From: a virus
Reading direction: 5' to 3' (one strand)
Virus record (IMG/VR): IMGVR_UViG_3300009008_000048
Coordinates: 1 to 54,600 of that record
DNA: 54,600 nucleotides
This document shows positions 8,905 to 32,670 of this stretch, one piece after another. Position numbers and translations under genes: made by a program. The notes beneath the pieces are model-generated. The model saw only the letters and a program-made list of their open reading frames with translations. It was not told the DNA's origin and made no database searches. Within the stretch, counting starts at the first letter, position 1. Every line of letters begins with the position of its first letter.

Positions 8905-10473
8905 TTATTTTTCTTTATATGGGGCTATTGTTATAGCCGCACCACTTGTTATTAATATACCTGCAGTTGCTACAGAGTTAGTTATTTCATTTTTTACTAC
9001 TTTAAATGGATCTATAATACCCTTTTCAAATAAATCGACATATTCATTATTAAGTGCATCATATCCTTTACCTGTTCTTAATACTTCTCCTATTATTGCA
9101 TCTGCATTTTCTCCCGCATTCTTTAATATTTTTCTCAAAGGCTTATTAAGCGCCTTTAATACTATTTCCTGCCCTGCTACAAATTCTTTACTGCTATCTA
9201 CAATAGCTATATCTTTACCTGCTTTTAATAATGCTATACCTCCACCCTCTACTATACCTTCTTGTATAGCTGAACGAGTAGCATTTAAAGCATCTTCTAT
9301 TCTATATTTAATTTCTGTTTGGTCTGTTTCTGAAGCTCCGCCTACTTTAATATTAGCTATTTGACCATTTAACTTACCAAGCCTTTCTTTTAACTTTTTA
9401 AGTTTAAATGTATCACCCTCTTCTTTTATTAAAGCTTTAACCTCTTCTATATTACCTTTAACATTTCCTTTGCCACCTGAAATAACTGTACTATCTCTAC
9501 CTATAATAACTTTATCACAAGTACCTAACTCATCTGCACCTGCATCTTCTATTTTAATTGATTCTTCTTTTCCTACTACTGTGGCCTCGGTTAATGTAGC
9601 TAAGTCTCTTAATAGATCCCCCTGATAACCGCCAAATGAAGGGTTATTAACAGGAACTATAGTAAACTTACCTAACATATGATTTTGAGCTAAAAATGCT
9701 AATGCTGCGCCTTCTATTTTATTAGCAAACAAAATTGCTTTATTATGCCCTGCTACTATTAATCTTTCTACTATAGGTATTAATTGGTTTGGATTATCTA
9801 TATCATCGCTACATATAATAACTTGTGGGTTTTCTGCTTCATAAGATAACCTTTTAGGATTATTTATAAAAACATGTGATTGATAACCATTATTTAACTC
9901 AATACCTTTAACATATTCCACTTTTGTTTCCATTTCTGAGGAATTAGTTACTGTAACAACACCATCTACACCTATTTTATTAACTACTTCCATAATAAGT
10001 TTACCCACCTTTTCATCGTTATTAGCAGATATAATAGCTGTTTGTAACTTTTCTTTATTGGTTTTTATTTGCTTTGTTTGTTTTTTAAGGTTCTTTAACA
10101 CTAATTGTAGCGCATAATCCATTCCCCTTTTAATTAAAATTGGGTTCATGCCTGCTACTATATATTTATTAGCCTCATTAACCATAGAGGCCAGCAATAC
10201 TACTGTTGAGGTAGTGCCATCACCAGCCTCTCGGTTCGTATTTTCGGCCGCCTCGCGTGTTATCATTACTCCCATATTCTCGAACTTATCCTTTAAGAAT
10301 ATCTGCTGAGCAACCGTGACCCCATCTTTAGTTATAGTTGGATAAGAACTATCTTCAAAGATAACATTTTGCCCTCTCGGACCCAATGTAGTCGATACAG
10401 CGTCTGCTGTTATATTTAAACCCCGTAGGATTTTTTCTCTAGCTTCTTGTCTAAATTTTAATTCTTTATACAT
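8905..10473 (-). CDS. groEL: Phage GroEL-type chaperonin (Hsp60)
   Basis: A 522-residue chaperonin close to the usual 540. It keeps the ATP-binding signatures STTLGPRGQNV, TKDGVTVAQQI and AGDGTTSTVVL, and the signature EDALNATRSAIQEGIVEGGG with the catalytic Asp. The equatorial, intermediate and apical domains are all present. It lacks the GGM-rich C-terminal tail of cellular GroEL and ends IAPYKEK. It forms a pair with the GroES-like gene directly upstream in transcription (2-base gap). It probably folds large virion proteins such as the capsid protein. Sequence divergence from usual cellular forms suggests long phage residence. Confidence 0.95.
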   Translation of the reverse strand: MYKELKFRQEAREKILRGLNITADAVSTTLGPRGQNVIFEDSSYPTITKDGVTVAQQIFLKDKFENMGVMITREAAENTNREAGDGTTSTVVLLASMVNEANKYIVAGMNPILIKRGMDYALQLVLKNLKKQTKQIKTNKEKLQTAIISANNDEKVGKLIMEVVNKIGVDGVVTVTNSSEMETKVEYVKGIELNNGYQSHVFINNPKRLSYEAENPQVIICSDDIDNPNQLIPIVERLIVAGHNKAILFANKIEGAALAFLAQNHMLGKFTIVPVNNPSFGGYQGDLLRDLATLTEATVVGKEESIKIEDAGADELGTCDKVIIGRDSTVISGGKGNVKGNIEEVKALIKEEGDTFKLKKLKERLGKLNGQIANIKVGGASETDQTEIKYRIEDALNATRSAIQEGIVEGGGIALLKAGKDIAIVDSSKEFVAGQEIVLKALNKPLRKILKNAGENADAIIGEVLRTGKGYDALNNEYVDLFEKGIIDPFKVVKNEITNSVATAGILITSGAAITIAPYKEK

Positions 10474-10962: not shown

Positions 10963-12990
10963 TTAATTATAATCCCAATCATTAGACATTTTAGGCCTTA
11001 ACAACCCTTCAATATCTTTTTGTATTCGCGTCTTTGGTTTAGGTAGTTTATAAGGAGCATTTGGACGTGTCATAATCATGTATCTTAATGCGTCACAATT
11101 ATGTACTATTACTCCTTGACATGCAAAATTATGAATTCCTTTTACCTCCATATTATATACATATTGCTTTTCCCCTCTTTTTATATCTACTATTTTATGA
11201 TTATACTGTTTCTTTAAAATCGATCTATACTTTTTATAACATTTTAATGAACATGTTTTTGTTGTTGTATACTTATTTATATTAAACTCTTTATTACATA
11301 TGAAGCATTCTCTGTTTATATTATCAATTCCTGAAGCTATTCTGTTTTTAATATAACAAGCACCTGAACAATAAATCCCAGTACCATCTTCTGTTGTAAA
11401 CATTCTTTCACAAACTTTACATTGTTTTTCTTGCCTTCTTTTCTTTCTATTCTCTTCTGACCATGCATTTTTAGCATGTTGTTTATGCCATTTTTTACCT
11501 TCTTCGCTTTTATGCCATGCTTTTGTTAAATGCCTAATACTGTCTAAGTGATTAATACCAGCTATTCGATAATCTTTACGTATCCAATTTTTAATACTTG
11601 CAATACCTAATTTTCGTTTCGTAGTCTTAGAACATTTCCTATTCTTTGAATGTATCGCACAATGATCTGCTCTTGTTAATAATTGTAAATTATCAGGGTT
11701 ATTATTTAACTTATCTTCATTTAAATGATGAATATTCCATTTCCAGCTATCTTCTGGTAATTCGCCTATAATATCTTGATATACTAGTCTATGTGCTGAT
11801 TTTGTACTGCCATTATTTAAATTTATATGTAAATGACCATTACTATCTATGTTTCTATATAAAGGCATTAAACTATCTCCTATTTTAAGTTTACCTGCTT
11901 CTTTATACTCTCCATTTCGTAATAATACTGGATGATCTTCTGTTAATACAAGTTTTTCTTTATTATCTAATATTATTTGTATTGTTTCTCTTTTTCCTGT
12001 TTTAGCAACATTATTGAAAGGAGCTACTGTTATTCTTTCTAATTGCTGACTAAACCCATAAACATGCCCTTTTTTGCCCACTAAATCTTTAATAGCTATA
12101 TCTCCGTCTGTGGTATGTACTATACTACTTCCTATAACACATGCATGATCATCCTTTTTTACTGGTTCTTCACTCATGTTACGTGTTTTTTGTTGCAATT
12201 CAGTTAATTCTTTATACCTGTAATTCTGTAGCTCTGTACATAGGTTTGGACATTTATCACGAAATACATATAAATGCGACTTACTATCTGCATCTAATTG
12301 AAAATATTCTCTTATTCTGTTAATACCAGCTGCAACATCGTTATTTCCACGTTCAAATTCCCATCCATTATCATAAAACTCTTCTACAACAGAGTAAGGT
12401 ATCTCTTCTCCTTCTGTTATTTTAGACCTATTCTTATGACCTGTTGTTGGATCTATAACTCGAATCTGAAAATAAGTGTTTGCTATATCTCTTAACTGTC
12501 GCAAAGATTTACCTTCTATGTTGTCTTTACCCCCTAATAAGTAATCAAAGTGCTGAAACATACTTTTTGATGACTTTGACGGTAGTGCTGCTTCATAATA
12601 CTCATCTATTATATACAATTCTTGGTTTTTTGTCCAAGCACCTACTAAAGCGGCAGTTGGATTTCTCTGTCCAAAATCTAATGCAAGTATTAATTCATAT
12701 GGTTGTTCTAACTCAAAGCTGTTAATAAGGTGTACTTCTGGCTTAAAATCACAGTAATCTGAACCATATATTAACTTACCAGACTTTGTAGCAAAATCTA
12801 TTTCGTATTCTTTATCCCACAGTGCTTTTAATGTACCCTTCTTTTCTCTATCATACCACTTTTTACCTTTTCTTTGTGGGTCTTTTTCAGGATCTGCAGT
12901 ATAATGTAGCATTAAAACAGTGAAACCATTCTTGTTTTCCCACTTTTTAATACCTCTTACTATTGGTTTTTTCTTTATATCGTCGTACAT
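10963..12990 (-). CDS. Terminase large subunit, nuclease half, with an intein
   Basis: A 675-residue frame. Residues 1-283 and 632-675 are the C-terminal RNase H-like nuclease half of TerL: LMLHYTADPEKDP, EYEIDFATKSGKLIYG, first metal Asp in LILALDFGQRNP (D105), IIDEYYEA, and the third Asp in DHA-CDALRYM. Residues 284-631 are an intein inserted between DHA and CDALRY. The ATPase half is a separate gene whose TAA overlaps this ATG by one base. The two halves together align along a usual TerL. Splicing of the intein restores the metal-binding motif needed for DNA cutting during packaging. Confidence 0.9.
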   Translation of the reverse strand: MYDDIKKKPIVRGIKKWENKNGFTVLMLHYTADPEKDPQRKGKKWYDREKKGTLKALWDKEYEIDFATKSGKLIYGSDYCDFKPEVHLINSFELEQPYELILALDFGQRNPTAALVGAWTKNQELYIIDEYYEAALPSKSSKSMFQHFDYLLGGKDNIEGKSLRQLRDIANTYFQIRVIDPTTGHKNRSKITEGEEIPYSVVEEFYDNGWEFERGNNDVAAGINRIREYFQLDADSKSHLYVFRDKCPNLCTELQNYRYKELTELQQKTRNMSEEPVKKDDHACVIGSSIVHTTDGDIAIKDLVGKKGHVYGFSQQLERITVAPFNNVAKTGKRETIQIILDNKEKLVLTEDHPVLLRNGEYKEAGKLKIGDSLMPLYRNIDSNGHLHINLNNGSTKSAHRLVYQDIIGELPEDSWKWNIHHLNEDKLNNNPDNLQLLTRADHCAIHSKNRKCSKTTKRKLGIASIKNWIRKDYRIAGINHLDSIRHLTKAWHKSEEGKKWHKQHAKNAWSEENRKKRRQEKQCKVCERMFTTEDGTGIYCSGACYIKNRIASGIDNINRECFICNKEFNINKYTTTKTCSLKCYKKYRSILKKQYNHKIVDIKRGEKQYVYNMEVKGIHNFACQGVIVHNCDALRYMIMTRPNAPYKLPKPKTRIQKDIEGLLRPKMSNDWDYN
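11098..12141 (-). mobile_element. HNH-containing intein in TerL
   Basis: A 348-residue intein with Cys1 (CVIGSSIVHTTDGD, block A), block B (LVLTEDHPVLLRNGEYKEAG), an HNH nuclease core (WNIHHLNEDKLNNNPDNL), paired cysteine motifs (CKVCERMF, CFICNKEF) and the C-terminal blocks F and G (VYNMEVKGIHNFAC, VHN). The next extein residue is Cys+1. All residues for standard class 1 splicing are present. Boundaries follow from the extein match DHA/CDALRY. It disrupts a nuclease active-site motif. Confidence 0.92.
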
Positions 12991-13955: not shown

Positions 13956-14411
13956 TAATTCTTTAAGAATCTTAGCCTTTAATGCATCTTTCTCTTTACC
14001 ACTCATTTTTGTTATATCTACCTCTTGTTCCTCTATTTTAACTATTTGTTTCTCCGGTTCAAAACCACCTGTTAACTTAGCATAAGTGACAATAGCCGCA
14101 TTTATAGCAGTAGCATCATCTATATTATCTACTAAAGCACCTTGAAAATATATAGGTTTTTTAGTATTTAACAAGCTTTTAACCTTTTTCATTATCAGCT
14201 TCTTATCTATACCAGCCTTTAAACCAACCAGCTCATAGCTGCCTTGTATTTGCTGTATCTTATCTAATACACGCTGATCTTGTAATAATTTATGTGCCTC
14301 GCTAGTACATATATTGCTTTTACTTTGGTTATAAGCCTTTTTATAAGCTTTAGACCCATTAAAGCCATTAGCAACATATTCCTCGCAGAATGCTGTCATT
14401 TTATCAGTCAT
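13953..14411 (-). CDS. Terminase small subunit
   Basis: A 152-residue protein with the Terminase_2-type N-terminal DNA-binding helix-turn-helix: MTAFCEEYVANGFNGSKAY then KKAYNQS, followed by a coiled oligomerisation region and an acidic C-terminal helix (MSGKEKDALKAKILKEL). It recognises the packaging site and regulates TerL. It is the first gene of the leftward late arm, a classic position, and its start lies just downstream of a promoter-like sequence at 14430-14458. Confidence 0.87.
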   Translation of the reverse strand: MTDKMTAFCEEYVANGFNGSKAYKKAYNQSKSNICTSEAHKLLQDQRVLDKIQQIQGSYELVGLKAGIDKKLIMKKVKSLLNTKKPIYFQGALVDNIDDATAINAAIVTYAKLTGGFEPEKQIVKIEEQEVDITKMSGKEKDALKAKILKEL

Positions 14412-14429
14412 ATTTTTAACTTCAATGGT

Positions 14430-14458
14430 ATTTTACCATAGATTCAGAAAAATAGCAA
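14430..14458 (-). promoter_or_regulatory. Candidate late promoter for the terminase operon
   Basis: On the minus strand TTGCTA, a 17-bp spacer, and TAAAAT lie about 20 bases upstream of the TerS start. This gives a short leader. The -35 TTGCT core matches that of the two rightward promoters at 14739 and 15494. Confidence 0.55.
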
Positions 14459-14518
14459 GTACCCCCCCCCTTATAGATATCAGATACCCCCACCATTTCT
14501 GTGACATCCCCCCCGTCT

Positions 14519-14595
14519 AAGTTGTCATGAAGTTGTCATGAAGTTGTCATGAAGTTGTCATGAAGTTGTCATGAAGTTGTCATGAAGTTGTCATG
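14519..14595. repeat. Seven tandem copies of an 11-bp unit
   Basis: AAGTTGTCATG is repeated seven times without a mismatch (77 bp). An 11-bp period places each copy on nearly the same DNA face. This is the layout of iterons or of a cooperative repressor/activator array. It lies between divergent promoters, about 60 bp upstream of the leftward -35. Confidence 0.95.
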
Positions 14596-14738
14596 GGTGT
14601 GGGTGTGTTGTGGTATATAGTATATATATAATAGGGTAGGAATAAGTTTGTGAATTGTGTTTTTGTATCCCCAGGAGACTATCCTTTATTTTTTATATTA
14701 TTATTTTATTACTATATTATATGGCTTGTAGTTTCAGG

Positions 14739-14767
14739 TTGCTTTTATTTTTTATATATGCTATAAT
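14739..14767 (+). promoter_or_regulatory. Rightward promoter P1 (TTGCTT-17-TATAAT)
   Basis: TTGCTT and TATAAT are separated by exactly 17 bp, and preceded by GTTTCAGG. The same arrangement, with GTTTTAGG and an ATATATG before the -10, recurs at 15494. It drives the 69-aa gene after a leader of about 210 bases. Confidence 0.7.
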
Positions 14768-14987
14768 GTATATGTAAGTTAATACAACCTAGCACATTAA
14801 AAAACATATGTAAAAGTTATATATAATAACCATAATAAGTAAGTAATATTAAAAGCTGGGGCTGTTATGGTGTAAATTAAAAATTCTGTAATATTCTGGC
14901 TGGTTGTGTGCTAAGCAACACATTAAAAGGTTTATTTAATTAGTAATTACTACTTAATAAAAGTAGTAAAAGAAAGGGGACATTAAT

Positions 14988-15197
14988 ATGTCAGAATACA
15001 CAGATGCACAAATGTTAGCAGCGGGCAAAAAAGCCCTGGAAGCTAAGGATAGGCAAATTGCCTACGATAAAGTTTACAATTTAGGTAAACGCATCGAGTT
15101 AGCAACCTTACGAGAACATTATGTGCAAGCTGGCGGGTCTTTGGCACAATTAGTAAAGGACTCAAAAGCGGAAGCTATTAAGCAACTAGGCGAATAG
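14988..15197 (+). CDS. Small helical protein, paralogue A (69 aa)
   Basis: A 69-residue helical protein starting MSEYTDAQMLAAGKKALEA, with a purine-rich Shine-Dalgarno (AAAGGGG) before the ATG, one of the clearer ones here. It is a paralogue of the 87-aa protein at 15673, sharing MSEYT, a KALE/KTLE helix and an AYDKVYN / VYDRLYN motif. As the first rightward gene with its own promoter it is probably expressed immediately after infection. It may be a regulator or host-takeover factor; no known family is recognised. Confidence 0.75.
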   Translation: MSEYTDAQMLAAGKKALEAKDRQIAYDKVYNLGKRIELATLREHYVQAGGSLAQLVKDSKAEAIKQLGE

Positions 15198-15200
15198 CTT

Positions 15201-15254
15201 TAGGTGCTGGGCAACACGTTAAACTGCCCAAAGGGTAGTTATGGGCTGCCCTTT
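15201..15254 (+). terminator. 54-bp structured repeat copy 1, with terminator hairpin
   Basis: Starts four bases after the paralogue A stop. It folds into two hairpins: TGGGCA/TGCCCA, then AAAGGGTAG/CTGCCCTTT (15230-15254), the latter followed by TTAATAATT. An exact copy lies 89 bp downstream. The second hairpin acts like a Rho-independent terminator. The GGGCA and TGCCC segments could also pair in alternative ways. Confidence 0.7.
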
Positions 15255-15289
15255 TTAATAATTAACAGTAATTATATGTAAGATTTTTA

Positions 15290-15343
15290 TAGGTGCTGGG
15301 CAACACGTTAAACTGCCCAAAGGGTAGTTATGGGCTGCCCTTT
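15290..15343 (+). repeat. 54-bp structured repeat copy 2
   Basis: An exact second copy of 15201-15254, offset 89 bp. Here the terminator-like stem is followed by GCGTC, not a T-run. No gene lies between the copies. The GTGCT..GCAACAC..TTAAA core is also found at 14908-14927. Confidence 0.9.
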
Positions 15344-15493
15344 GCGTCTTTGGTAGGGGTTAGTAAGGGCAACTAGGCTTTGTGACTTACGTTGGGATGG
15401 GGATAAGATGAGAGCGGAGAGCAAACGCGAGCACGAACCAATTCTAACTTCCAACTATGCTGATATCTCAGAGATTTATTTGGGGGTTTTAGG

Positions 15494-15522
15494 TTGCTTA
15501 AATTATAAATATATGTTATAAT
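15494..15522 (+). promoter_or_regulatory. Rightward promoter P2 (TTGCTT-17-TATAAT)
   Basis: TTGCTT, 17 bp, TATAAT, preceded by GTTTTAGG. The spacer ends ATATATGT, almost as at 14739. It serves the paralogue B gene after a 140-base leader containing a doubled CATCGTTCATT. The shared extended motif argues that both are true promoters. Confidence 0.7.
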
Positions 15523-15672
15523 TATATTGTAAATGCTAAAATAGTCTTAATTATCATTAACATCGTTCATTCATCGTTCATTCACAACATTCATATATGC
15601 AAGTCATATATATTTAATCATTAATTTCTGTCTATTATAATAGTAGATAGAAAAGGGAAAGGGACATGATAT

Positions 15673-15936
15673 ATGTCAGAATACACTAATGAGCAACTAA
15701 TAGAATTGGGTCGTAAAACACTCGAAACTAGAGAAGCTCAAAAAGTCTATGATAGACTGTATAATGCTCGTATTAAATGGGTAAATCAACAACTGATTGA
15801 TTCTTACAACGAGCTAGCAGATCAGTCATACAATCAACTAGTTCTAGCAAGCAAAGAAATGTCACTGTCAGAGTTGGTTCAAGTAGACCACGAGTGTCGT
15901 GGTTTATCTGCTACTTCTACGGAACTACATGTTTAA
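15673..15936 (+). CDS. Small helical protein, paralogue B (87 aa)
   Basis: An 87-residue protein starting MSEYTNEQLIELGRKTLET, homologous to paralogue A in its first 35 residues (VYDRLYNARIKWV) and then diverging into a longer tail ending GLSATSTELHV. A GGGAAAGGGACAT ribosome site precedes the ATG. The gene has its own promoter, an AT-rich leader, and a strong terminator, so it is a monocistronic unit. Early regulator or host-takeover role is inferred only from position. Confidence 0.75.
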   Translation: MSEYTNEQLIELGRKTLETREAQKVYDRLYNARIKWVNQQLIDSYNELADQSYNQLVLASKEMSLSELVQVDHECRGLSATSTELHV

Positions 15937-15958
15937 TGTTGTTAGAGGCATAGACACT

Positions 15959-15990
15959 AAAAGAGGGAGCTTTAATCAGCTTCTTCTTTT
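15959..15990 (+). terminator. Rho-independent terminator after paralogue B
   Basis: A 13-bp stem (AAAAGAGGGAGCT with AGCTTCTTCTTTT, two G-U pairs) with a 6-base loop, ending in TTTTGTTGTTT. It lies 23 bases after the stop codon. Confidence 0.75.
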
Positions 15991-16475
15991 GTTGTTTAAC
16001 ATATGAATAGATCTAAGGGGGGTATGAGGTATGTTTTATATACAATCAGAGGTATCAGAGTATACCTGAGGTATCAGAGTATACCTTCAGAGTATACCAG
16101 GAGACAGAGTAATAAAGACTGTTCGTGGTCATAGCGCCAATTCAGTCACTATTTATTATTCTATACCATACAGCCTCAAATCCTCTTTATATAGCCGAGA
16201 AAATACTATGTCGAGGAGCTAATCATAAAATCATATAATAGCTATCACATATGATCTAGGTTATCTATTCAGTATAGAAGCTTGTCCTATACAACTGACG
16301 GAGGGGTTTATACCTCTCTGTTGGTTGTTATCTAAAAAGTTCTCTATATAGCCGAGAAATATCAGGTGATTCAAACATATGAAAAAGTAAGAAAAGTTCT
16401 TATATTATAATGTTTTTATTCATCTCAGCATATTTCCAAGTTATGGTGAGATTCTAATTATTAACAACCAGACCT
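15991..16475 (+). other. Gene-free region with repeats and hairpins
   Basis: No open frame of note. It contains the 19-bp tandem repeat at 16049-16098, two copies of TATAGCCGAGAAAT/A near 16190 and 16348, a hairpin CAAC..GAGG/CCTC..GTTG around 16289-16327, and an isolated TATAAT at 16406 that may serve the gene at 16476 but lacks a good -35. It is probably a regulatory leader or encodes a small RNA; no tRNA was recognised. Confidence 0.5.
16049..16098. repeat. 19-bp tandem repeat with inverted GGTAT/ATACC arms
   Basis: GAGGTATCAGAGTATACCT occurs twice in perfect tandem (16049-16067, 16068-16086), followed by a partial third TCAGAGTATACC. Each unit has GGTAT/ATACC dyad symmetry, as in an operator for a dimeric regulator. 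Confidence 0.85.
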
Positions 16476-16721
16476 ATGCCTAAGAAAAACATTCTGAATA
16501 TAGTTCAGATGCAACAACTAGAAACTTTACGATATGTCCAAAAAGAGATCTATTGTAAGCAAGAAAATAGACTAATAGTCTTAAAGAAAATTAATCCAAC
16601 TTTAGAAGAAATTGGTCGTCTTTATGGTGAACCAGAAACACAAACAGATAGAGACTTCGACAAATTTCTGAACCCATCAAAGTATGGGCTAATGTCATGG
16701 AAAGAAAGATGGGGATTATGA
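16476..16721 (+). CDS. Hypothetical protein (81 aa)
   Basis: An 81-residue protein (MPKKNILNIVQMQQLETLR) with a helical N-terminal half and a NPTLEEIGRLYG segment that resembles a short helix-turn-helix. The end is rich in aromatic residues (MSWKERWGL). It overlaps the next gene by ATGA, so three short genes from here to 17133 form an operon. No family recognised. Confidence 0.6.
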   Translation: MPKKNILNIVQMQQLETLRYVQKEIYCKQENRLIVLKKINPTLEEIGRLYGEPETQTDRDFDKFLNPSKYGLMSWKERWGL

Positions 16722-16903
16722 ATTATGATGAAGAAATAATTCGTCATTATGATAAACAAACAGATGTGACTATAGAAGAGGAATACGGTCCTGCTGACCA
16801 ATGTCCTCAATGTAAGGAGACGTCTTATCAACCTGTAATGCTAGAAGGAAGTAATACAGGTGAATGGATATGTAATAAATGTAATTATCAAGATGTAATA
16901 TGA
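16718..16903 (+). CDS. Small zinc-ribbon protein (61 aa)
   Basis: Starts at the ATG of an ATGA overlap with the previous stop (an upstream in-frame ATG at 16697 is less likely). It has two cysteine pairs, CPQCKE and CNKCNYQ, about 30 residues apart, forming a zinc ribbon. It ends in an ATGA overlap with the next gene. Zinc-ribbon proteins of this size in phages often bind nucleic acids or protein partners; no more specific role is visible. Confidence 0.65.
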   Translation: MNYDEEIIRHYDKQTDVTIEEEYGPADQCPQCKETSYQPVMLEGSNTGEWICNKCNYQDVI

Positions 16904-17133
16904 AAAAAGCAAAGAAAGACAATTTAGAGCATATATTGAGTGCTCTATATAAAATTAAGAAGATAAATAGAAAGAAACAATATACAGAACAAGAGCTAAT
17001 AGAACTAGTAAGTAATGATCCGGCAGGTCAGAATGTTATAAAGCAATTACAAGAGATGAAGGTTAGTAGTTCTCAGTTATTTAACAGAGGATACTATTTA
17101 GCTTCTACTATATTAGAGGGATTTATAGACTAA
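16900..17133 (+). CDS. Hypothetical helical protein (77 aa)
   Basis: A 77-residue Lys-rich helical protein starting MKKAKKDNLEHILSAL, coupled to the zinc-ribbon gene by ATGA. The segment YTEQELIELVSNDPAGQNVI could be a small winged-helix or SAM-like fold. It is the last gene before the structured leader of the ubiquitin-like cassette. Confidence 0.6.
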   Translation: MKKAKKDNLEHILSALYKIKKINRKKQYTEQELIELVSNDPAGQNVIKQLQEMKVSSSQLFNRGYYLASTILEGFID

Positions 17134-17283
17134 GTCTCTTTATACAGCCGACTTTACGCCACCAAAGTCACAATCTGCCCGAAGGTTAGCCAATTCCATT
17201 GGTTTCTTTTGGATAGCTTGTCATAGCTATGACTTAATAATTAAGTGATATCTTATGGTATCACAAGGAAAGGTTTTTTCAAT
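17134..17283 (+). promoter_or_regulatory. Structured leader upstream of the Ubl gene
   Basis: In 150 bases there are five dyads: GACTTT/AAAGTC (17150-17169), CCAAT/ATTGG (17190-17202), TCATAGCTATGA (17221-17232), CTTAATAATTAAG (17233-17245) and GTGATA/TATCAC (17245-17264). They are followed by an AAGGAAAGG ribosome site before the ATG at 17284. It looks like a regulated 5' leader or an operator cluster; I could match no known riboswitch class. Confidence 0.55.
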
Positions 17284-17625
17284 ATGAGAAAAACAACAAC
17301 AGAGACTACAGATACTATTTCTGTAGAAGTGGGTCGTTTTAACGAACCAACAAGAGGCATCGACATTGCTGAAGGTGCTACTATTCAAGAAGTAATAAAA
17401 GTATTAGACATTACATTGTCTGATACTGAAACTTTATGGGTAGACGGAGAAAAGGCTGAAGCTAATGATATCGTTGAAAATAACGATAGAATTCAAATCG
17501 TTGGTAAAAAAGAAGGTGGTAATTATGAAGACATTACACCAGAAGTAGAAGTGCCAACAGAAGAAGTTAAAGACGAGGAAGAAACTCCTGCTTTAACCGA
17601 TGAAGATGCTCCAGTTCAAGAATAA
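17284..17625 (+). CDS. Ubiquitin-like (ThiS/MoaD-type) precursor protein
   Basis: A 113-residue protein from the ATG with a good ribosome site (GTG at 17245 is in frame but has none). Residues 10-79 follow a beta-grasp pattern: strands TISVEVGRFN, DIAEGATIQEVIKVLDI helix, ETLWVDGEKAEANDIVENND and RIQIVGKKEGG. The GG at 78-79 corresponds to the mature C-terminus of ThiS/ubiquitin-like modifiers. A 34-residue acidic tail (to PVQE) follows, so a protease must remove it before activation. The JAMM protease, E1-like and E2-like genes follow directly. The nearest known cassettes are PRTRC and BIL-type operons. Confidence 0.8.
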   Translation: MRKTTTETTDTISVEVGRFNEPTRGIDIAEGATIQEVIKVLDITLSDTETLWVDGEKAEANDIVENNDRIQIVGKKEGGNYEDITPEVEVPTEEVKDEEETPALTDEDAPVQE

Positions 17626-17634
17626 ACAAATTAT

Positions 17635-17666
17635 AGAGGGTTAAGGAGACTTAGCCCTCTTTTTTT
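17635..17666 (+). terminator. Terminator between Ubl and E2-like genes
   Basis: An AGAGGG/CCCTCT stem extended by TTAA/TTAG pairing, followed by seven Ts. It lies 10 bases after the Ubl stop. Read-through would feed the downstream enzymes, so it likely makes the modifier more abundant than its enzymes. Confidence 0.8.
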
Positions 17667-17688
17667 GTTGATTATTAAATCAAATAAT

Positions 17689-18810
17689 ATGATAAAAGTA
17701 GAAAAGAAAAAAGAAAAAAAAGAAAAAAAGGAGAAAAAGGTCGAAAAATTAGAAACTATTTACTACGGAGATGAAATAGTTACTACAGATAAATGTATCT
17801 TAGGAGAAGGTAAAAAAGGAATAGTAAGAGTAAAAAAGTTAGACTTCTTTGGTATAGAATTTAAGGATATAGTCTTAGATAAGGAGTTACCAAAGAATGA
17901 GCAGCTTCATAATATCAGTAGTGTATTACAGAAAAATGAAGGGTATATGTTATCTAGAGACGAATTTAAGGTAATCAATAGAAAAGAATATGATGATAAG
18001 ACTAAAGAGAGATTAGTTAATATTCTCAAAGAACAAGGGTTTAATGATTTTCATGAACTACCAAAGACCATAGCATCTATCAAAGATAGTATAGGGTATG
18101 CTACTTCTAGAATACATGAAATGACACAAGATGTGAGAAGAACAAATAAAGATAAAGACCTAAATATATTAAAACTAAAAGAATTAGAAAGTAAAACTTT
18201 AGAATTTGATTATTCACAAGCAGAAAATGTTTTTAATAAGATATCTGGTAATAAGAAAGTTCATAAGTTTTCTATTACTGATAACTATTTAGTTATAACG
18301 ACCAAAAATCTTACATACAGCCAGAATGTTTCAGAGCTACCAGACTTTGATTTAGGTAGATTTAAGATATTTATACCTATTAACGATCCTAATAAAAGTA
18401 TAAAAGCAGTTAATATATCCAGACATCTAAGCAAAGGATACTATGGACATCCTTGTTTAGAAAACTCATTAAATATTTGTATGGGTCTTGATGTATCTGA
18501 CGTTGTTCATAATTATAAAAATAGCGGAGACTATTACGGACTTGTTTTAGTTTTAATAAACTTCTTTGAACAACCAGACTATGGAGAGCCTTATAGAAAA
18601 GACTATGAGTTTTATTGTGCTCAAGATATTGACATACATGATGAAATAAAAGATGAAGAAGACTGGTTAAGTAGAGATATATTGGCTAAATCTTCTTGGG
18701 ACGAAGAACAATTCTTAAAGGATTTAACTAACATTAAAGAACAAATTGATGTAGATATAGACAGATGCGGGAACTGTGATAACTACATAGACGAATGTTC
18801 ATGCGAATAA
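17689..18810 (+). CDS. E2-like (ubiquitin-conjugating-type) protein with C-terminal zinc motif
   Basis: A 373-residue protein from the ATG at 17689. The N-terminus is a Lys/Glu stretch. Residues about 200-305 resemble the prokaryotic E2/PRTRC-B fold: FKIFIPINDPNKSIKAV, then HPCLENSLNICMGLD with Cys256 and Cys264, then a helix (YYGLVLVLINFF). In bacterial E2s an HPH..CLG-type motif carries the catalytic cysteine; here HPC and ICMG fit, with Cys264 the better candidate. The C-terminus has CGNC..CSC, a possible zinc knuckle. Position between Ubl and JAMM/E1 genes supports an E2 role. Sequence similarity is low, so this is the least certain of the four enzymes. Confidence 0.7.
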   Translation: MIKVEKKKEKKEKKEKKVEKLETIYYGDEIVTTDKCILGEGKKGIVRVKKLDFFGIEFKDIVLDKELPKNEQLHNISSVLQKNEGYMLSRDEFKVINRKEYDDKTKERLVNILKEQGFNDFHELPKTIASIKDSIGYATSRIHEMTQDVRRTNKDKDLNILKLKELESKTLEFDYSQAENVFNKISGNKKVHKFSITDNYLVITTKNLTYSQNVSELPDFDLGRFKIFIPINDPNKSIKAVNISRHLSKGYYGHPCLENSLNICMGLDVSDVVHNYKNSGDYYGLVLVLINFFEQPDYGEPYRKDYEFYCAQDIDIHDEIKDEEDWLSRDILAKSSWDEEQFLKDLTNIKEQIDVDIDRCGNCDNYIDECSCE

Positions 18811-18820
18811 TAAAAAAATT

Positions 18821-19654
18821 ATGGATTTAATTATTACAAAAGAAGCATATCTTAAGCTCAAGTATTATATTGGGCTTGTAGATACTGAAATTTCTGGTAT
18901 GGGTAAAAGCCATATCGACAAGGACGGAGATATAATACTGTCAGACGTTATTATATTTCATCAAGAAGTCTCTGGGTCTAGCACGGATTTAGATGAAGCA
19001 TCAATGGCTAAGTTTTTATCTGAGCTAATGAAAAAGGGGGAAAAGACAGAGGAATGGAATGTTTGGTGGCACAGTCATGCAGACATGGATGTATTTTGGT
19101 CTTCTACAGATGATGATACAATAGCAGAACATTGTAATCACCAGAGTCATCTAATAAGTTTAGTTGGAAATAGAAAAGGCAAGTTCAAAGCTCGTTTAGA
19201 TTTATTTCCTAAAGATACTTCACCTTTTAATTACCAAGAAATACATTACAAGGAAGATGTAGATGTAAAAATAGAGGAAGACGATAGTAATACAGATGCT
19301 ATAGACAAGTTAGAAGACGCTATAGAGAAGGCATATCAAAAAATAGATAAGTATAAAGGTAAGAGCGATCCTGCTATACAAAAGGCTTGTCAAAAGGAAA
19401 TAGACGACAAGGTAACGGAGTATGTTGTCCCCAACAAAGTCACTAACAAATGGTCATGGACTGGTGATAATCAAGATGCTATAACTTATGACAATCAAGA
19501 TTGGAATGGTAGTCATTATAAAAATTATTACGATGATTATTATGGTGGCTATGAAATATGTATTGATTGTGGATATACACTAGAACAATGTGCTAAAAAC
19601 AAACAATGTCCTACATCAGAAGAAAATGATTCATTATTAAAATTAAACATATGA
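18821..19654 (+). CDS. JAMM/JAB metalloprotease (deubiquitinase-like)
   Basis: A 277-residue protein with an intact JAMM motif: Glu23 in DTEISGMG, then H84-S-H86, seven residues, S94-x2-D97 (HSHADMDVFWSSTD). These bind zinc and activate water in the JAB/MPN+ family. The C-terminal part is acidic and ends with a cysteine cluster (CIDCGYTLEQCAKNKQC) that may bind zinc. The gene lies between the E2-like and E1-like genes and overlaps the latter by ATGA. Likely roles are maturing the Ubl precursor at its GG and/or removing it from targets. Confidence 0.88.
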   Translation: MDLIITKEAYLKLKYYIGLVDTEISGMGKSHIDKDGDIILSDVIIFHQEVSGSSTDLDEASMAKFLSELMKKGEKTEEWNVWWHSHADMDVFWSSTDDDTIAEHCNHQSHLISLVGNRKGKFKARLDLFPKDTSPFNYQEIHYKEDVDVKIEEDDSNTDAIDKLEDAIEKAYQKIDKYKGKSDPAIQKACQKEIDDKVTEYVVPNKVTNKWSWTGDNQDAITYDNQDWNGSHYKNYYDDYYGGYEICIDCGYTLEQCAKNKQCPTSEENDSLLKLNI

Positions 19655-20280
19655 CAAATGAAAGACACAAGAGGTCATTAGATATAATTGACCCAGACAA
19701 ATTAGACTTTCCAATTCATATATTGGGAGTAGGAGGCATAGGAAGCTGGACTGCCCTAATCTTAGCCAAGATGGGAGCTTTAGATATTACTGTATATGAC
19801 GATGACGTAGTAGAAGACCATAATGTAGCTTCTCAATTTTACAAAGAAAGCCAATTAGGAGAAGAAAAGACAAAGGCTTTGGCTGATAATGTTTCAGAAC
19901 AGACAGGTGTTAAAATATTACCTATGCCTATATCAGGAGAAAGAAATATAAAAAAAGGTATAGTTATTATTGCTATAGATTCTATGGAAAGACGTCATAA
20001 AATAGCTGATAAATTAGAATATAGTATAAATTGGATAATAGATGGTCGTATGGGAGGCACACAATTTGAGATATATAGTCAACAAACAGAACTATATAAA
20101 GAAACTTTAGTAAATCCAGATGATGTTCATCCAGATGCCTGCACAGCGAAAGCTATAAGTTTCAATTGTTCTGTTATAGCAGGTATGATAGCTAATTATA
20201 TTAGATTATATGCTGATGGTAATAGAGATAAACACGCTATCACCTTTGGCTTTAACGATGTTGAATTATTAAAAGAATAA
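19651..20280 (+). CDS. ThiF/E1-like adenylyltransferase
   Basis: A 209-residue minimal E1-like protein: the nucleotide-binding motif GVGGIGSW (residues 26-32), YDDDVVEDHNVASQF with the conserved Asp and Asn, a K in GEEKTKAL, AIDSMERR, the DGRMGG turn, and a DACTAK motif whose Cys164 may accept the Ubl. It lacks the extra domains of eukaryotic E1s, as is usual for PRTRC and BIL-type ThiF proteins. It would adenylate the Gly-Gly end of the Ubl. It is translationally coupled to the JAMM gene. Confidence 0.88.
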   Translation: MTNERHKRSLDIIDPDKLDFPIHILGVGGIGSWTALILAKMGALDITVYDDDVVEDHNVASQFYKESQLGEEKTKALADNVSEQTGVKILPMPISGERNIKKGIVIIAIDSMERRHKIADKLEYSINWIIDGRMGGTQFEIYSQQTELYKETLVNPDDVHPDACTAKAISFNCSVIAGMIANYIRLYADGNRDKHAITFGFNDVELLKE

Positions 20281-20284
20281 ATAT

Positions 20285-20593
20285 ATGAAAAAACAAGAAA
20301 TTTATATCACTAATTTGAATGAAGGTATGATAAATGAAGACAATCATGTAATAGTAGGAGTAATTCATAGTATAAAAGACAATGTAATTACTCTTACTCA
20401 TACTAAACATTTTTATGAAATTGATATGTCGTATAATAATATGCTTCACACCTATACCAAATACTTATTTAATAATCAACTATATTCGTCTGATATATGG
20501 AAAGTTAAAAAGACAAATAAAAAGGGAAGTATGCTTAAGAGATTAAATATAAATATGAAACTAATTAACCAAATCTACAATGACACAAACTAA
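20285..20593 (+). CDS. Hypothetical protein (102 aa)
   Basis: A 102-residue protein with a short beta-rich core (GMINEDNHVIVGVIHSIKDNVITLTH) followed by an aromatic, basic C-terminal half. The core has the look of a small SH3-like or OB barrel. It starts four bases after the E1-like stop, so it may belong to the same transcript. No family recognised; a fifth cassette component is possible. Confidence 0.6.
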   Translation: MKKQEIYITNLNEGMINEDNHVIVGVIHSIKDNVITLTHTKHFYEIDMSYNNMLHTYTKYLFNNQLYSSDIWKVKKTNKKGSMLKRLNINMKLINQIYNDTN

Positions 20594-20990
20594 AATAATC
20601 ATACCAATAACACTGCTAATGGTATCGACTGCTGTATTGATACCTCTTTTAGCTAAAAAGCCCTTAGAAGTGCTACCAAACGCGTCAGATAGCAAAATAG
20701 AATCGCCAATTAAGTCACAATTTGGTGTTGCTTCTTATTATGACTACATTTTAGACTCTGGTTGGTCAAGTTTAGGACACAGGGTATGTGCTACTAGAGA
20801 CTGGGAAAGGTATTCGTATATTAAAGTGACAAATATAGACAATGGATTATCTGTTGTATGTAAGGTGACAGACTACGGTCCAGACGAATCCATATTCCCA
20901 GAAAGAATAGTAGATCTTTCTAGCTTTGCTTTTAGCCAAATAGCAGAACTGAAGCTGGGAATAATAAATATAAAGATAGAAAATTATTAA
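20580..20990 (+). CDS. RlpA-like double-psi beta-barrel protein, membrane-anchored or secreted
   Basis: Residues about 5-25 form a hydrophobic signal or anchor helix (IIIPITLLMVSTAVLIPLL). Residues 48-136 match the RlpA/expansin-like double-psi barrel: GVASYYD, a Cys (RVCATR), VTNIDNGLSVVCKVTDYGPDE, and RIVDLSSFAF with a final LKLGIINIKI strand. The family includes septal lytic transglycosylases; the barrel Asp (in TDYGPD and RIVDLS) is kept. The two cysteines could form a disulfide outside the cell. It could remodel host peptidoglycan or act in lysis or superinfection control. Confidence 0.78.
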   Translation: MTQTKIIIPITLLMVSTAVLIPLLAKKPLEVLPNASDSKIESPIKSQFGVASYYDYILDSGWSSLGHRVCATRDWERYSYIKVTNIDNGLSVVCKVTDYGPDESIFPERIVDLSSFAFSQIAELKLGIINIKIENY

Positions 20991-21009
20991 ATAGAAAGGG
21001 AACAAAATT

Positions 21010-21438
21010 ATGGGAGACAGAGTAAGTATTGCCTTTAAGAAGGGCAAAGAAGAAAGTGTATCACTGTTTAATCATTGGGGAGGCAAAGAGTTTGCTTCAG
21101 ATGCTATTAAATATGTGAACGAATTAAAGAAAGAAGTAGGCGATAATAAAGTTCAACCATTAGAAAGGTTAGAGCCTCATACGGTAATGGTGGACTTTAT
21201 AAGAGAAATTACTCAAAAAGAAAAAAGAGTTATGAGCTCTTTATATTTGGGTAAAGACGAAGAAGATGGAGATAACAGCGATAATGGGCATTTTAATATA
21301 CATTTAGATAGAAACATATGTCCAATATGCTTAGAACCATTTGATGAATATCCCGCTCTAAGCAGAGTAGACAATAAAACGAATATATGTTCTGCCTGCG
21401 GGGTGAAAGAAGCTTTAACTAACTTTAACGATAAATAA
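21010..21438 (+). CDS. Zinc-ribbon protein (142 aa)
   Basis: A 142-residue protein with a GAAAGGG ribosome site. The N-terminal half has MGDRVSIAFKKGKEESVSLF and a NHWGG motif seen in phage proteins of unknown role. The C-terminal half has CPICLEPF and CSACGVKEAL, with the PALSRVDNKTNIC core that recurs in many small phage zinc-ribbon proteins. Function is unknown; a regulator or nucleic-acid binder is possible. Confidence 0.7.
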   Translation: MGDRVSIAFKKGKEESVSLFNHWGGKEFASDAIKYVNELKKEVGDNKVQPLERLEPHTVMVDFIREITQKEKRVMSSLYLGKDEEDGDNSDNGHFNIHLDRNICPICLEPFDEYPALSRVDNKTNICSACGVKEALTNFNDK

Positions 21439-21439
21439 T

Positions 21440-21694
21440 ATGTCAAATGAAGCAAGATGCCCAGAGTGCAATGATGTTATAGAACATCTTAATTATAGTG
21501 CAGATGTAAGAGAATGGGGAACGTGTAGTTTATATGGTGACGATTTTAATTATAGTGATGCTGACACAGGAGATACTTATTACCAATGTCCTGAATGTGA
21601 GAAAGATATAAACCCAGATGATATACAGTATGAAGAAATAGAACCACCTCCACCACCTACTGCTAAAACATTAAATCAAGAGATGAACCGTTAA
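21440..21694 (+). CDS. Small acidic zinc protein (84 aa)
   Basis: An 84-residue acidic protein with CPECND near the start and CPECEKDIN near the middle, probably one zinc ribbon split by an acidic loop. It ends in a poly-Pro stretch (PPPPPTAKTL). It starts one base after the previous stop and is the last gene before the minus-strand 119-aa frame, whose end overlaps it by four bases. Confidence 0.65.
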   Translation: MSNEARCPECNDVIEHLNYSADVREWGTCSLYGDDFNYSDADTGDTYYQCPECEKDINPDDIQYEEIEPPPPPTAKTLNQEMNR

Positions 21695-29030: not shown

Positions 29031-29405
29031 ATGAGATTAAAAGTACAACATTTCTTTGATGCTAGTCATCAGTTACCAGACTCAGATGATTTAGTAACAA
29101 AGGCCTGTGCAACGATGCACGGCCACACTTACAAAGTTGTCGTGGACATAGAAGGAGAGAATAACAGGGGCGGAATGGTTGTAGATTTCAAAGCTGTTAA
29201 ACAAATAATAGATATATTTGACCATCAACACATTAATAAAGTATTAGATGAAAATCACTTTAAAGGTGAGGCTACTGCAGAAAATATGGCAATATTTCTA
29301 TTTAATAAAATAAAGGTCGATCTAAAATTAAACGTAAAAGGTGTTGCTGTATGTGAGGGCTATAAAGGAGAAGACAAAGCTTCGTGGGCAATTTATAATG
29401 GATAA
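29031..29405 (+). CDS. queD: QueD, 6-carboxytetrahydropterin synthase
   Basis: A 124-residue protein of the PTPS/QueD family. Zinc ligands are His13 (DASHQL), His30 and His32 in ATMHGH; catalytic Cys26 lies in KACATMHGH, the CxxxHGH motif that marks QueD. Also present are GMVVDFKAVK, FDHQHINKV and an EGYKGE end. It converts dihydroneopterin triphosphate to 6-carboxytetrahydropterin, the second step to preQ0. QueE, QueC, GTP cyclohydrolase I and QueF follow within five kilobases. Confidence 0.92.
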   Translation: MRLKVQHFFDASHQLPDSDDLVTKACATMHGHTYKVVVDIEGENNRGGMVVDFKAVKQIIDIFDHQHINKVLDENHFKGEATAENMAIFLFNKIKVDLKLNVKGVAVCEGYKGEDKASWAIYNG

Positions 29406-29688
29406 TATGAAACATTTATTAAGTGCGGGTGATTATTATATTTTTTCTGGTAAATTTCAGTATACCGTTAAGAAGTTTGAAAACTTTTTAGACAATGGTG
29501 AAAGAGAGTATAGTGATCCAACATATCATACAACATTAATATCTGCACTAGAAGAATTAAACGAACGAATTAAAAAAGATAAGTTTACTAAATGTAAAGA
29601 TATTAAAGACATTATAACTCAACAAAAAGCAATAAACAAACAATTTTTAAAAGATATGAAAAAATATGAGAATAGCAAAAATGCCTAA
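29398..29688 (+). CDS. Hypothetical protein between queD and queE (96 aa)
   Basis: Starts within the queD stop region (ATG at 29398 or 29407). It has KHLLSAGDYYIFSGKFQYTVKKFENF and a helical, basic C-terminus (KAINKQFLKDMKK). It overlaps queE by 23 bases. No pathway enzyme matches; it may be an accessory or an unrelated small insert. Confidence 0.6.
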   Translation: MDNMKHLLSAGDYYIFSGKFQYTVKKFENFLDNGEREYSDPTYHTTLISALEELNERIKKDKFTKCKDIKDIITQQKAINKQFLKDMKKYENSKNA

Positions 29689-30397
29689 CGGCGAACCCGA
29701 GATATATGTTGCTGTACAAGGAGAAGGTAAGACAATAGGTGTACCATCTGTATTTGTAAGGTTATCGGGATGCAACTTACACTGTAAATGGTGTGACACA
29801 GCATATACTTGGAACTTTGAAAACACTCCATGGAAACATGATATAGAGGATAAACATAAAATAGATGAAATGCAATATGAAATAAGTGTTAAAAAGGTAG
29901 TAAAGAAAATTAAAGAAATAGCTCCACCTAATAAAAATGTAGTTTTCACAGGTGGTGAACCATTATTACAACAAGTAGAATTGTGGCAAGTAATGAAAGA
30001 ATTTAGTAACGATTGGACATTTGAAATAGAAACTAATGGCACTATAGAGTTTAACAAACAATTACTTCATAATGTGCTTGTTAATTGTAGTCCTAAGTTA
30101 GCTAATTCAGGTAATGATATAAACAAGCGATTAAACTATGATGTGTTGAACGCCATTAAAGTCGCTAATAGTATATTCAAATTTGTAATAGATGGTGAAG
30201 AGAGTTTAGCAGAAGTAGAAAAAATAGTTGAACAATTACAAATACCAAGAAACAAAATTTATTTAATGCCAGAAGGTATTGAAACAAATGATATTATAAA
30301 TGGAACTAGAGCACTATCTATTATATGTGCAGAACGAGGGTGGAATTTAAGTACTCGTCTACAAGTGATATTATATAATACAAAAAGAGCAGTTTAA
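29666..30397 (+). CDS. queE: QueE, 7-carboxy-7-deazaguanine synthase (radical SAM)
   Basis: A 243-residue radical-SAM enzyme. The cluster motif is SGCNLHCKWCDTAYTW (Cys36, Cys40, Cys43; the CxxxCxxC form of QueE). Substrate motifs VAVQGEGKTIG and VFTGGEPLLQ and ETNGTIE are also present. It converts 6-carboxytetrahydropterin to CDG. The start overlaps the previous gene; a short A-rich leader precedes the ATG. Confidence 0.93.
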   Translation: MRIAKMPNGEPEIYVAVQGEGKTIGVPSVFVRLSGCNLHCKWCDTAYTWNFENTPWKHDIEDKHKIDEMQYEISVKKVVKKIKEIAPPNKNVVFTGGEPLLQQVELWQVMKEFSNDWTFEIETNGTIEFNKQLLHNVLVNCSPKLANSGNDINKRLNYDVLNAIKVANSIFKFVIDGEESLAEVEKIVEQLQIPRNKIYLMPEGIETNDIINGTRALSIICAERGWNLSTRLQVILYNTKRAV

Positions 30398-30417
30398 TCA
30401 ATTAACATAAAAAAATT

Positions 30418-30654
30418 ATGCCTCCAGTAAAAGGAAAAAAGAACCCTAATATGGCTCGTAAAGGTAAAGATAACGGGCGATGGAAGGGCGGTAAGTCTTC
30501 AGATTATAGACGTAGAATTACCAACGCTAAAAAAGGTGAAGTGGTACACCATAAAGACCACAACAAAGCTAATAATACTAAATCTAATTTAAAGAAATTA
30601 TCTTCTATAGGTGCTCATAATAAAGCACATCCAGAGAAAGGAGGAAGACACTAA
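30418..30654 (+). CDS. Small HNH homing endonuclease-like protein (78 aa)
   Basis: Residues 36-70 (NAKKGEVVHHKDHNKANNTK then SNLKKL..HNKAH) match the HNH core of phage homing endonucleases (HH..DHN..N). The N-terminal half has NGRWKGGKSSDY, a DNA-binding linker common to this family. It sits between queE and queC, splitting the pathway genes, and probably inserted itself there. Confidence 0.8.
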   Translation: MPPVKGKKNPNMARKGKDNGRWKGGKSSDYRRRITNAKKGEVVHHKDHNKANNTKSNLKKLSSIGAHNKAHPEKGGRH

Positions 30655-30888
30655 ATGATTAAAGCAAAAGAACAATGGGTAGATGTTGAAATGGTAGATA
30701 TATGTTTTGATAACAACGAACAAAATATGGCTTTAATTAAATTCGATGATTTATTAGATCTTAATATGTACTTAGAACATGCTCAGAATGTAAAAAAAGT
30801 AAAGCTATTAACAGAGGGTAACCTATGGAAACTTAAAACAGTTTACTATGTGTTAGTGGACTATAAGGAGGAATACCAAAATGAGTAA
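30655..30888 (+). CDS. Hypothetical protein upstream of queC (77 aa)
   Basis: A 77-residue alpha/beta protein (KEQWVDVEMVDICFDNNEQN, DDLLDLNMYLEHAQNV). It starts one base after the HNH stop and overlaps queC by eight bases. No recognised family. Confidence 0.55.
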   Translation: MIKAKEQWVDVEMVDICFDNNEQNMALIKFDDLLDLNMYLEHAQNVKKVKLLTEGNLWKLKTVYYVLVDYKEEYQNE

Positions 30889-31591: not shown

Positions 31592-31597
31592 ACTAAT

Positions 31598-31655
31598 TCC
31601 CCCTCTTTAACAGGGCAGATAACCCCCTTTCCTGTCTGCTCTGTTATGGGGGGGC
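31598..31655 (+). other. Strong GC-rich hairpin after queC
   Basis: An 11-bp stem (AACAGGGCAGA with TCTGCTCTGTT, one G-U pair) is extended outward by CCCCC/GGGGG pairing across the gap. No T-run follows, so it is a processing or attenuator structure more than a terminator. PreQ1 riboswitch class I features (short stem plus A-rich tail over a ribosome site) were not seen. Confidence 0.55.
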
Positions 31656-31666
31656 AATAATGTAGT

Positions 31667-31810
31667 ATGAAAAAAACACACAATAAACTTTTAAAAAAAT
31701 ATAACAGCTTTTTTAATTATGCAGAAGTACCTCATCTAAAAAGTATACCTTATCTAATATTTTCTTGTATATATGTGATTGGTATATATTTATTTTTAAA
31801 AAATTTATGA
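31667..31810 (+). CDS. Small membrane protein (47 aa)
   Basis: An ATG at 31667 opens 47 codons: a basic N-terminus (MKKTHNKLLKKY), then a transmembrane helix (IPYLIFSCIYVIGIYLFL) and a short tail. It ends in an ATGA overlap with the next gene. Function unknown. Confidence 0.55.
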   Translation: MKKTHNKLLKKYNSFFNYAEVPHLKSIPYLIFSCIYVIGIYLFLKNL

Positions 31811-32669: not shown

Positions 32670-32670
32670 T

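What the first reader, a model, noticed from the sequence alone, without database searches (positions are those of the whole stretch)
17284..20280. Phage-borne ubiquitin-like conjugation cassette (Ubl, E2, JAMM, E1)
Four consecutive genes encode a beta-grasp modifier ending in an internal GG, an E2-like protein with candidate catalytic Cys264, a JAMM protease with intact E/HxH/Sx2D motif, and a minimal ThiF/E1 with GVGGIGS. The same set is known in PRTRC and BIL-type bacterial operons; BIL acts against phages. Here it is on a phage, in the early/middle arm with its own structured leader. It could tag host defence or virion proteins, or counter host Ubl-based immunity.
Basis: partly seen in the sequence, partly recalled or inferred. 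Interest (0 to 1): 0.92.

Follow-up and report, generated by a model that had tools for sequence, protein, structure and literature searches.

The report
Phage-encoded ubiquitin-like tagging cassette
This virus of bacteria carries four adjacent genes that look like a complete, minimal ubiquitin system (a small protein tag, two enzymes to attach it, one to trim or remove it), and the same set recurs in many unrelated phages, so tagging proteins in this way may be an overlooked part of phage infection.

Summary
Window 17284-20280 (+) encodes, in order, a beta-grasp modifier (Ubl, 113 aa, Gly-Gly at 78-79 inside a precursor), an E2-like protein (373 aa, catalytic-type Cys264), a JAMM protease (277 aa) and a minimal ThiF-type E1 (209 aa). 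The Ubl profile matches SAMP2 in the PDB (E=4.6e-6) and its AlphaFold model is a confident beta-grasp. The E2 profile matches human UBE2L3 (E=5.5e-4; pairwise hhalign E=5.9e-7), Cys264 falling on the catalytic Cys. JAMM and E1 active-site residues are intact.

The set is not unique to this phage. About 15 other phage contigs carry all four genes; crAss-like and cultured Flavobacterium phages carry JAMM-E1 behind candidate Ubl and E2 genes. New observations: an RNA hairpin or terminator directly after the Ubl gene in most loci, and a Cys-rich tail on several E2s.

It is not PRTRC by curated models and lacks BIL or CBASS anatomy, but PRTRC has the same gene order. Best reading: a working phage Ubl conjugation/deconjugation pathway expressed with the replication genes, targets unknown. 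New variant of a known kind.

The parts
17134..17283 (+). structured 5' leader of the Ubl gene, with a hairpin just before the purine-rich ribosome-binding stretch
   Evidence: RNA fold of 17134-17300 z = -3.64, 0 of 200 shuffles as stable; no Rfam match
17284..17625 (+). Ubl precursor, 113 aa; predicted mature form residues 1-79 (to 17520), ending KKEGG
   Evidence: Pfam Ub-Mut7C 0.0028 and ThiS 0.02, below cut-off; profile vs SAMP2 4.6e-6; beta-grasp model, pLDDT 92-97 per block over residues 11-70; fold hits
17521..17622 (+). 34-aa acidic C-terminal tail after Gly79, predicted to be removed by the JAMM protease
   Evidence: relatives end at the same Gly with 0 to about 10 extra residues; model pLDDT about 60; cleavage is inferred
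17635..17660 (+). intrinsic-terminator-like hairpin with T-run between Ubl and E2 genes (possible attenuator giving excess Ubl)
   Evidence: 11-bp stem plus TTTTTT; gap fold z = -6.7; a hairpin at this place recurs in other loci
17689..18810 (+). E2-like protein, 373 aa: N-terminal KOW/SH3-like domain (residues ~18-101), long helix (103-171), UBC-like core (~175-310), C-terminal CxxC...CxC tail
   Evidence: A11 profile vs UBE2L3 5.5e-4, Cys aligned, hhalign 5.9e-7; model element order; KOW match Z 9.6, rmsd 1.8, 63 aligned
18448..18486 (+). E2 active-site motif HPCLENSLNICMG (His254 to Gly266), Cys264 = codon 18478-18480
   Evidence: His254, Pro255, Cys264, Gly266 invariant in 11 rows
18821..19654 (+). 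JAMM metalloprotease, 277 aa; Glu23, His84/His86, Ser94, Asp97; C-terminal Cys247/250/257/263 cluster
   Evidence: phmmer vs Caldiarchaeum Rpn11-like 2.8e-5; Pfam Prok-JAB 0.0024, below cut-off; alignment with phage relatives
19651..20280 (+). minimal E1 / ThiF-type adenylyltransferase, 209 aa; GVGGIGS 26-32; candidate thioester Cys164 (codon 20140-20142)
   Evidence: Pfam ThiF 4.7e-19, over cut-off; PDB matches incl. UBA5 and Uba1; Cys164 invariant

Best explanation
A phage-encoded, self-contained ubiquitin-like conjugation and deconjugation pathway. Most likely steps: (1) the Ubl gene is transcribed from its own leader, and a terminator-like hairpin after it keeps Ubl in excess over the enzymes; (2) JAMM trims the precursor after Gly79; (3) E1 adenylates the C-terminal Gly and takes it as a thioester on Cys164; (4) the Ubl passes to Cys264 of E2; (5) E2, whose KOW-like N-domain, long helix and Cys-rich tail may choose partners in place of an E3, joins it to target lysines; (6) JAMM also removes it. 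Shown here: the genes, folds or families, intact catalytic residues, co-conservation across phages, and the hairpin. Inferred: steps 1-6 as chemistry, and that targets are intracellular proteins of genome replication or host takeover rather than virion proteins.
For: Ubl: profile to SAMP2 running to its terminal GG, beta-grasp model and SUMO/SAMP1/ThiS fold hits. E2: UBE2L3 match with catalytic Cys and HP motif aligned; helix-4 strands-HPxC-helix-helix order. JAMM: Rpn11-like with all ligands. E1: ThiF family over cut-off, adenylation residues and Cys164 invariant. The four genes stay together in gene order or permuted order across deep divergence. Replication/recombination genes flank the cassette in several phages: PD-(D/E)XK exonuclease (window, L064), SNF2 helicase and DNA polymerase A (L001), DnaB-type helicase/primase (L041), Rad50-like (L065), DNA primase and uracil-DNA glycosylase (crAss001). 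Hairpin after Ubl in 10 of 14 loci at z < -3 against 7 of 31 other gaps, Fisher p 0.003, post hoc.
Against: No biochemistry. E2 fold not confirmed by structure search: the list was filled by the KOW-like domain and Ubc13 appears only at rank 31 with E 0.18. The canonical Asn of HPN is Cys here and His in most relatives. Some relatives have Gly-Asn rather than Gly-Gly at the Ubl end, or neither. Flanking genes were read in only a handful of loci, so the target guess is weak.
Confidence: 0.72

Rival explanations
1. Sulfur-carrier system: the Ubl is thiocarboxylated by the E1 and delivers sulfur to tRNA, DNA or a cofactor, as ThiS, MoaD, Urm1/SAMP2 do; JAMM only processes the carrier.
For: The Ubl is closest to SAMP2, ThiS and Mut7-C ubiquitin families, some of which carry sulfur. 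The phage also encodes base-modification genes (QueE-like and TGT-like).
Against: A dedicated E2-like gene with an invariant Cys accompanies the set in every full locus read; no rhodanese or sulfurtransferase was seen in the cassette. SAMP2 itself does both jobs.
Confidence: 0.1
2. Competitor exclusion: a phage-borne relative of BIL that tags virion proteins of superinfecting phages.
For: Same four activities as BIL, which attaches Ubl to a phage central tail fibre (as told in PMC11364771).
Against: Cassette lies with replication genes in many lytic-looking phages and is deeply conserved in crAss-like phages, unlike an accessory defence gene; single Ubl domain here.
Confidence: 0.08
3. Counter-defence: the cassette modifies host immune proteins or short-circuits host Ubl-based immunity (CBASS Cap2/Cap3, BIL, Bub).
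For: Hosts use such systems against phages; a phage JAMM could strip host conjugates.
Against: A stripping role needs only the JAMM, yet Ubl, E2 and E1 are kept too. No evidence on hosts.
Confidence: 0.1

Closest known systems
PRTRC cassette (PRTRC-C, -B, -A, ThiF) of plasmids and integrative elements
   Same: Gene order Ubl, E2-like, JAB, ThiF in the Polaromonas JS666 plasmid; E2-like Cys motif GSVCWG; E1 of the same superfamily, 30% identity over half.
   Different: PRTRC models not met; PRTRC E1s form their own clade (100/98) apart from the window; PRTRC-B here lacks the His-Pro; an extra gene lies between C and B; the window E2 has KOW-like and Cys-rich parts.
BIL (bacterial ISG15-like) anti-phage operon
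   Same: Separate Ubl, E1, E2 and JAMM protease; conjugates Ubl to proteins (PMC11364771).
   Different: Chromosomal defence, not phage; BIL's modifier has two Ubl domains (own knowledge), the window's has one. No BIL sequence was available to compare.
Bacterial operon type 6d of Iyer et al. 2006 (PMC1779556)
   Same: Stand-alone Ubl with C-terminal Gly, E1-like, E2-like and JAB in one operon.
   Different: 6d E2s lack the His near the Cys and have a downstream His; 6d JAB has an extra N-terminal domain; an alpha-helical partner gene is present. The window E2 keeps His-Pro and no such partner was seen.
crAss-like and Flavobacterium phage 'thiamine biosynthesis protein' locus (crAss001 gp79-gp76; Fpv phages)
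   Same: Same order: candidate Ubl, candidate E2 (HSH...PCxGxGPI), JAMM, ThiF E1.
   Different: Ubl and E2 there are only tentatively alike (hhalign P about 5e-4 for E2, 3e-3 for Ubl; no PDB match for the Ubl); Ubl has a long helical extension.
Archaeal SAMP2/UbaA/JAMM and Caldiarchaeum ubiquitin systems
   Same: Modifier closest to SAMP2; JAMM closest to Caldiarchaeum Rpn11-like.
   Different: SAMP pathway has no E2 (own knowledge); Caldiarchaeum uses a RING E3 (PMC5654768 abstract).
Lambda tail assembly TAPI (Ubl) / TAPK (JAB)
   Same: Phage Ubl plus JAB pair (PMC1779556).
   Different: No E1 or E2; lies among tail genes, whereas this cassette lies in the opposite arm.

Membership tests
PRTRC | ThiF protein over NCBIfam TIGR03736 cut-off | tested here: not met
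   36-38 bits against 144.75
PRTRC | PRTRC A, B, C proteins by NCBIfam models | tested here: not met
   no PRTRC model matched P0001-P0003 at E up to 1
PRTRC | gene order Ubl - E2 - JAB - E1 | tested here: met
PRTRC | ParB-related partner gene | not tested
   ParB models were not run on all window proteins
BIL | modifier with two tandem Ubl domains | tested here: not met
   one beta-grasp domain, then a disordered tail; that BIL has two is own knowledge
BIL | separate E1, E2 and JAMM genes beside the Ubl | tested here: met
BIL | protects cells from phage by tagging virions | not testable with these tools
   needs infection assays
Type II CBASS Cap2/Cap3 | E1-E2 fusion with a CD-NTase | tested here: not met
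   E1 and E2 are separate genes; PADLOC E1-E2 models match only the adenylation stretch of P0004; no CD-NTase among the four
Ubiquitin-like modifier (beta-grasp) | beta-grasp fold ending in Gly(-Gly) | tested here: met
UBC / E2 superfamily | catalytic Cys aligned with known E2s | tested here: met
UBC / E2 superfamily | UBC fold by structure comparison | tested here: inconclusive
   element order fits; fold search filled by the N-terminal domain
JAMM/MPN+ protease | Glu and HxH-x7-S-x2-D | tested here: met
E1 / ThiF-MoeB superfamily | adenylation fold signature and conserved Cys | tested here: met
   Pfam ThiF 68.9 bits over 28.1
Lambda TAPI/TAPK | Ubl and JAB inside the tail assembly cluster, no E1/E2 | tested here: not met
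   E1 and E2 present; cassette outside the structural genes

The most novel reading that the evidence does not exclude
Protein tagging by a phage's own ubiquitin-like system is a widespread, ancient phage core function, from crAss-like to 180-kb phages, acting on replication or takeover proteins; in some phages the tag feeds a phage-encoded ClpC-like unfoldase (as in L062, where such a gene directly follows the E1), making a viral counterpart of ubiquitin-dependent unfolding or degradation.
Probability: 0.15. Interest if true: 0.95.

Novelty: new variant of a known kind. Interest (0 to 1): 0.83.

Why it matters
Bacterial Ubl conjugation is known from defence operons and plasmid cassettes. A complete set in lytic-type phages, conserved over deep divergence, would mean phages themselves use ubiquitin-like tagging. 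It gives a function to the 'thiamine biosynthesis protein' ThiF annotated in crAss-like and Flavobacterium phages, some of which are cultured, so the question can be tested now. It also adds a stand-alone E2 lineage with His-Pro and catalytic Cys, useful for tracing the origin of ubiquitin systems.

Tried and rejected
Direct searches with the window's E2, JAMM and Ubl found no relatives in viral contigs or cultured phages; the family was reached through the E1. A six-row E1 alignment was too diverse to scan with. The global E2 alignment with crAss proteins was unreliable and not used. Foldseek/VIA hits of the Ubl model to transcobalamin share only a common arrangement. Thiamine biosynthesis was rejected as a function: no thiamine genes and an E2 is present. 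Hit L079 (Muribaculaceae contig) clusters with PRTRC E1s and was dropped. PRTRC-B and -C profile comparisons with the window E2 and Ubl gave only the Cys motif or nothing, with single sequences, so they are weak either way. Paper searches found no description of a full phage Ubl/E1/E2/JAMM cassette, but the BIL and Bub papers are not held, so prior description cannot be excluded. A jumbo-phage survey (PMC7824862) mentions no ThiF, JAB or Ubl.

Full report
WHAT IS THERE. The window is one virus record of 54,600 bases of a tailed phage: major head protein, portal and terminase are on the minus strand, along with a GroEL. The plus-strand arm from about 15 to 36 kb holds small genes, a PD-(D/E)XK exonuclease and a set of queuosine-type genes. 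The four genes of the finding sit in that arm at the stated coordinates.

THE MODIFIER. Single-sequence matches are below curated cut-offs (Ub-Mut7C 0.0028, ThiS 0.02). A 17-row alignment of Ubl genes found beside E1 genes in other phages finds SAMP2 (4.6e-6), PF1061 and ThiS in the PDB, aligned to SAMP2's last Gly. The AlphaFold model, from 13 rows, has block pLDDT of 92-97 over residues 11-70 with two strands, a helix and further strands, and a floppy tail. Foldseek gives 54 matches at E<=0.001, led by SUMO and archaeal Ubl proteins. The last conserved residue is Gly79; after it relatives have nothing or a few residues, whereas the window has 34 acidic residues. A precursor that needs trimming is the simplest reading.

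THE E2. Pfam gives nothing for the window protein. With relatives the pattern is plain: HP[HC]-x(5-6)-[GN]-x-x-C-[LFWM]-G, with His254, Pro255, Cys264 and Gly266 invariant in 11 rows. The profile finds UBE2L3 (5.5e-4) with its catalytic Cys and HPN aligned; hhalign to UBE2L3 alone gives 92% probability and 5.9e-7. The model (mean pLDDT 73.7) shows helix 175-186, strands 191-242, the HPC..C264 loop, then helices 266-279 and 282-294, which is the order of the UBC fold. The whole-chain structure search instead reported the N-terminal domain, a KOW/SH3-like barrel (Spt5 KOW, Z 9.6, rmsd 1.8, 63 residues), so the UBC fold rests on sequence profile and element order. The C-terminus carries Cys360, 363, 370, 372; several relatives have 11-15 Cys there, a possible zinc module that could stand in for an E3. 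Pfam does not recognise it.

THE PROTEASE AND E1. JAMM: Caldiarchaeum Rpn11-like is the best PDB match (2.8e-5), and all metal ligands are conserved in phage relatives. E1: ThiF family, over cut-off. Cys164 is invariant and sits where ThiF has its catalytic Cys (own knowledge of the ThiF sequence). The overlapping stop and start of JAMM and E1 suggest coupled translation.

RELATIVES. E1 searches found close cassettes in L052/L060 (E1 53%, JAMM 47%, E2 32%, Ubl 46%) and L061, and more distant full sets in L001, L003, L007, L030, L041, L046, L062-L070 and L076 (L063 without a Ubl recognised; L061 cut before it), some in 178-183 kb contigs. An independent DNA motif for E1 alone gave 38 usable contigs, 28 with JAMM within 1.5 kb. 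In the E1 tree the window sits with L052 and L061 (100/99), inside a loose group of environmental phage E1s (91/78). The crAss-like E1s form a clade (100/99) that also holds the Flavobacterium phage, and PRTRC E1s form another (100/98). In crAss001 and Fpv3 the order is candidate Ubl, candidate E2, JAMM, E1; JAMM and E1 are certain, Ubl and E2 tentative.

REGULATION. In addition a terminator-like hairpin lies at 17635-17660 directly after the Ubl stop. The same gap holds an unusually stable hairpin in 10 of 14 loci at z < -3, against 7 of 31 other intergenic gaps (Fisher p 0.003, Mann-Whitney p 0.002). This test was made after seeing the window hairpin, with small numbers and mechanical gene calls. 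A modifier is needed in excess of its enzymes, so partial termination makes sense, but no transcript data exist.

MECHANISM AND COMPARISON. See Best explanation. The set works like PRTRC, BIL and type 6d operons (PMC1779556), and PRTRC shares the gene order, but curated PRTRC models are not met and the modifier has one domain, unlike BIL's two (own knowledge). It is therefore filed as a new variant of bacterial Ubl conjugation systems, not as a member of any named one. The placement among replication and recombination genes in several phages favours intracellular targets, at low weight.

LIMITS. No experiment; no proof of conjugation; the host is unknown; prior description in papers not held here is possible.

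Noticed in passing
L062:6962-9481: A ClpC/ClpB-like AAA+ unfoldase gene (839 aa, Clp_N, AAA_2, ClpB_D2-small) with an N-terminal CxxC segment directly follows the Ubl-E2-JAMM-E1 cassette in a 178-kb phage contig.
   Followed up: partly
L063:3744-5280 and L052:2809-4743: Two E2-like genes in tandem in the same cassette (both with the HPH/HPC...C-x-G motif).
   Followed up: no
window 29031-35138: Queuosine/7-deazaguanine-type genes: QueE-like (29666-30397) and TGT/DpdA-like (34104-35138) by PHROGs; QueD-, QueC- and FolE-like ORFs by reading only. Possible deazaguanine DNA modification.
   Followed up: partly
window 35836-43185: A 2449-aa minus-strand protein whose inner part reads like the TGT/DpdA-like protein at 34104-35138, so a second copy may ride in a giant, possibly virion, protein.
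   Followed up: no
window 10963-12990 and 32671-34122: Two ORFs, one terminase-like and one QueF-like by reading, seem to be split by intein-like inserts (C...HNC ends; HNH-like middle).
   Followed up: no
window 8905-10473: Phage-encoded GroEL (PHROG 3.6e-128) among the structural genes.
   Followed up: partly
L003:5864-7201: A reverse-transcriptase-like ORF (YADDMMFS) directly downstream of the cassette in a human faecal phage record.
   Followed up: no
window 14988-15197 and 15673-15936: Two short paralogous ORFs (MSEYT-x-x-Q...) with several hairpins nearby at the start of the plus-strand arm; seven terminator-like sites in 14400-21500 against 2.2 expected.
   Followed up: no
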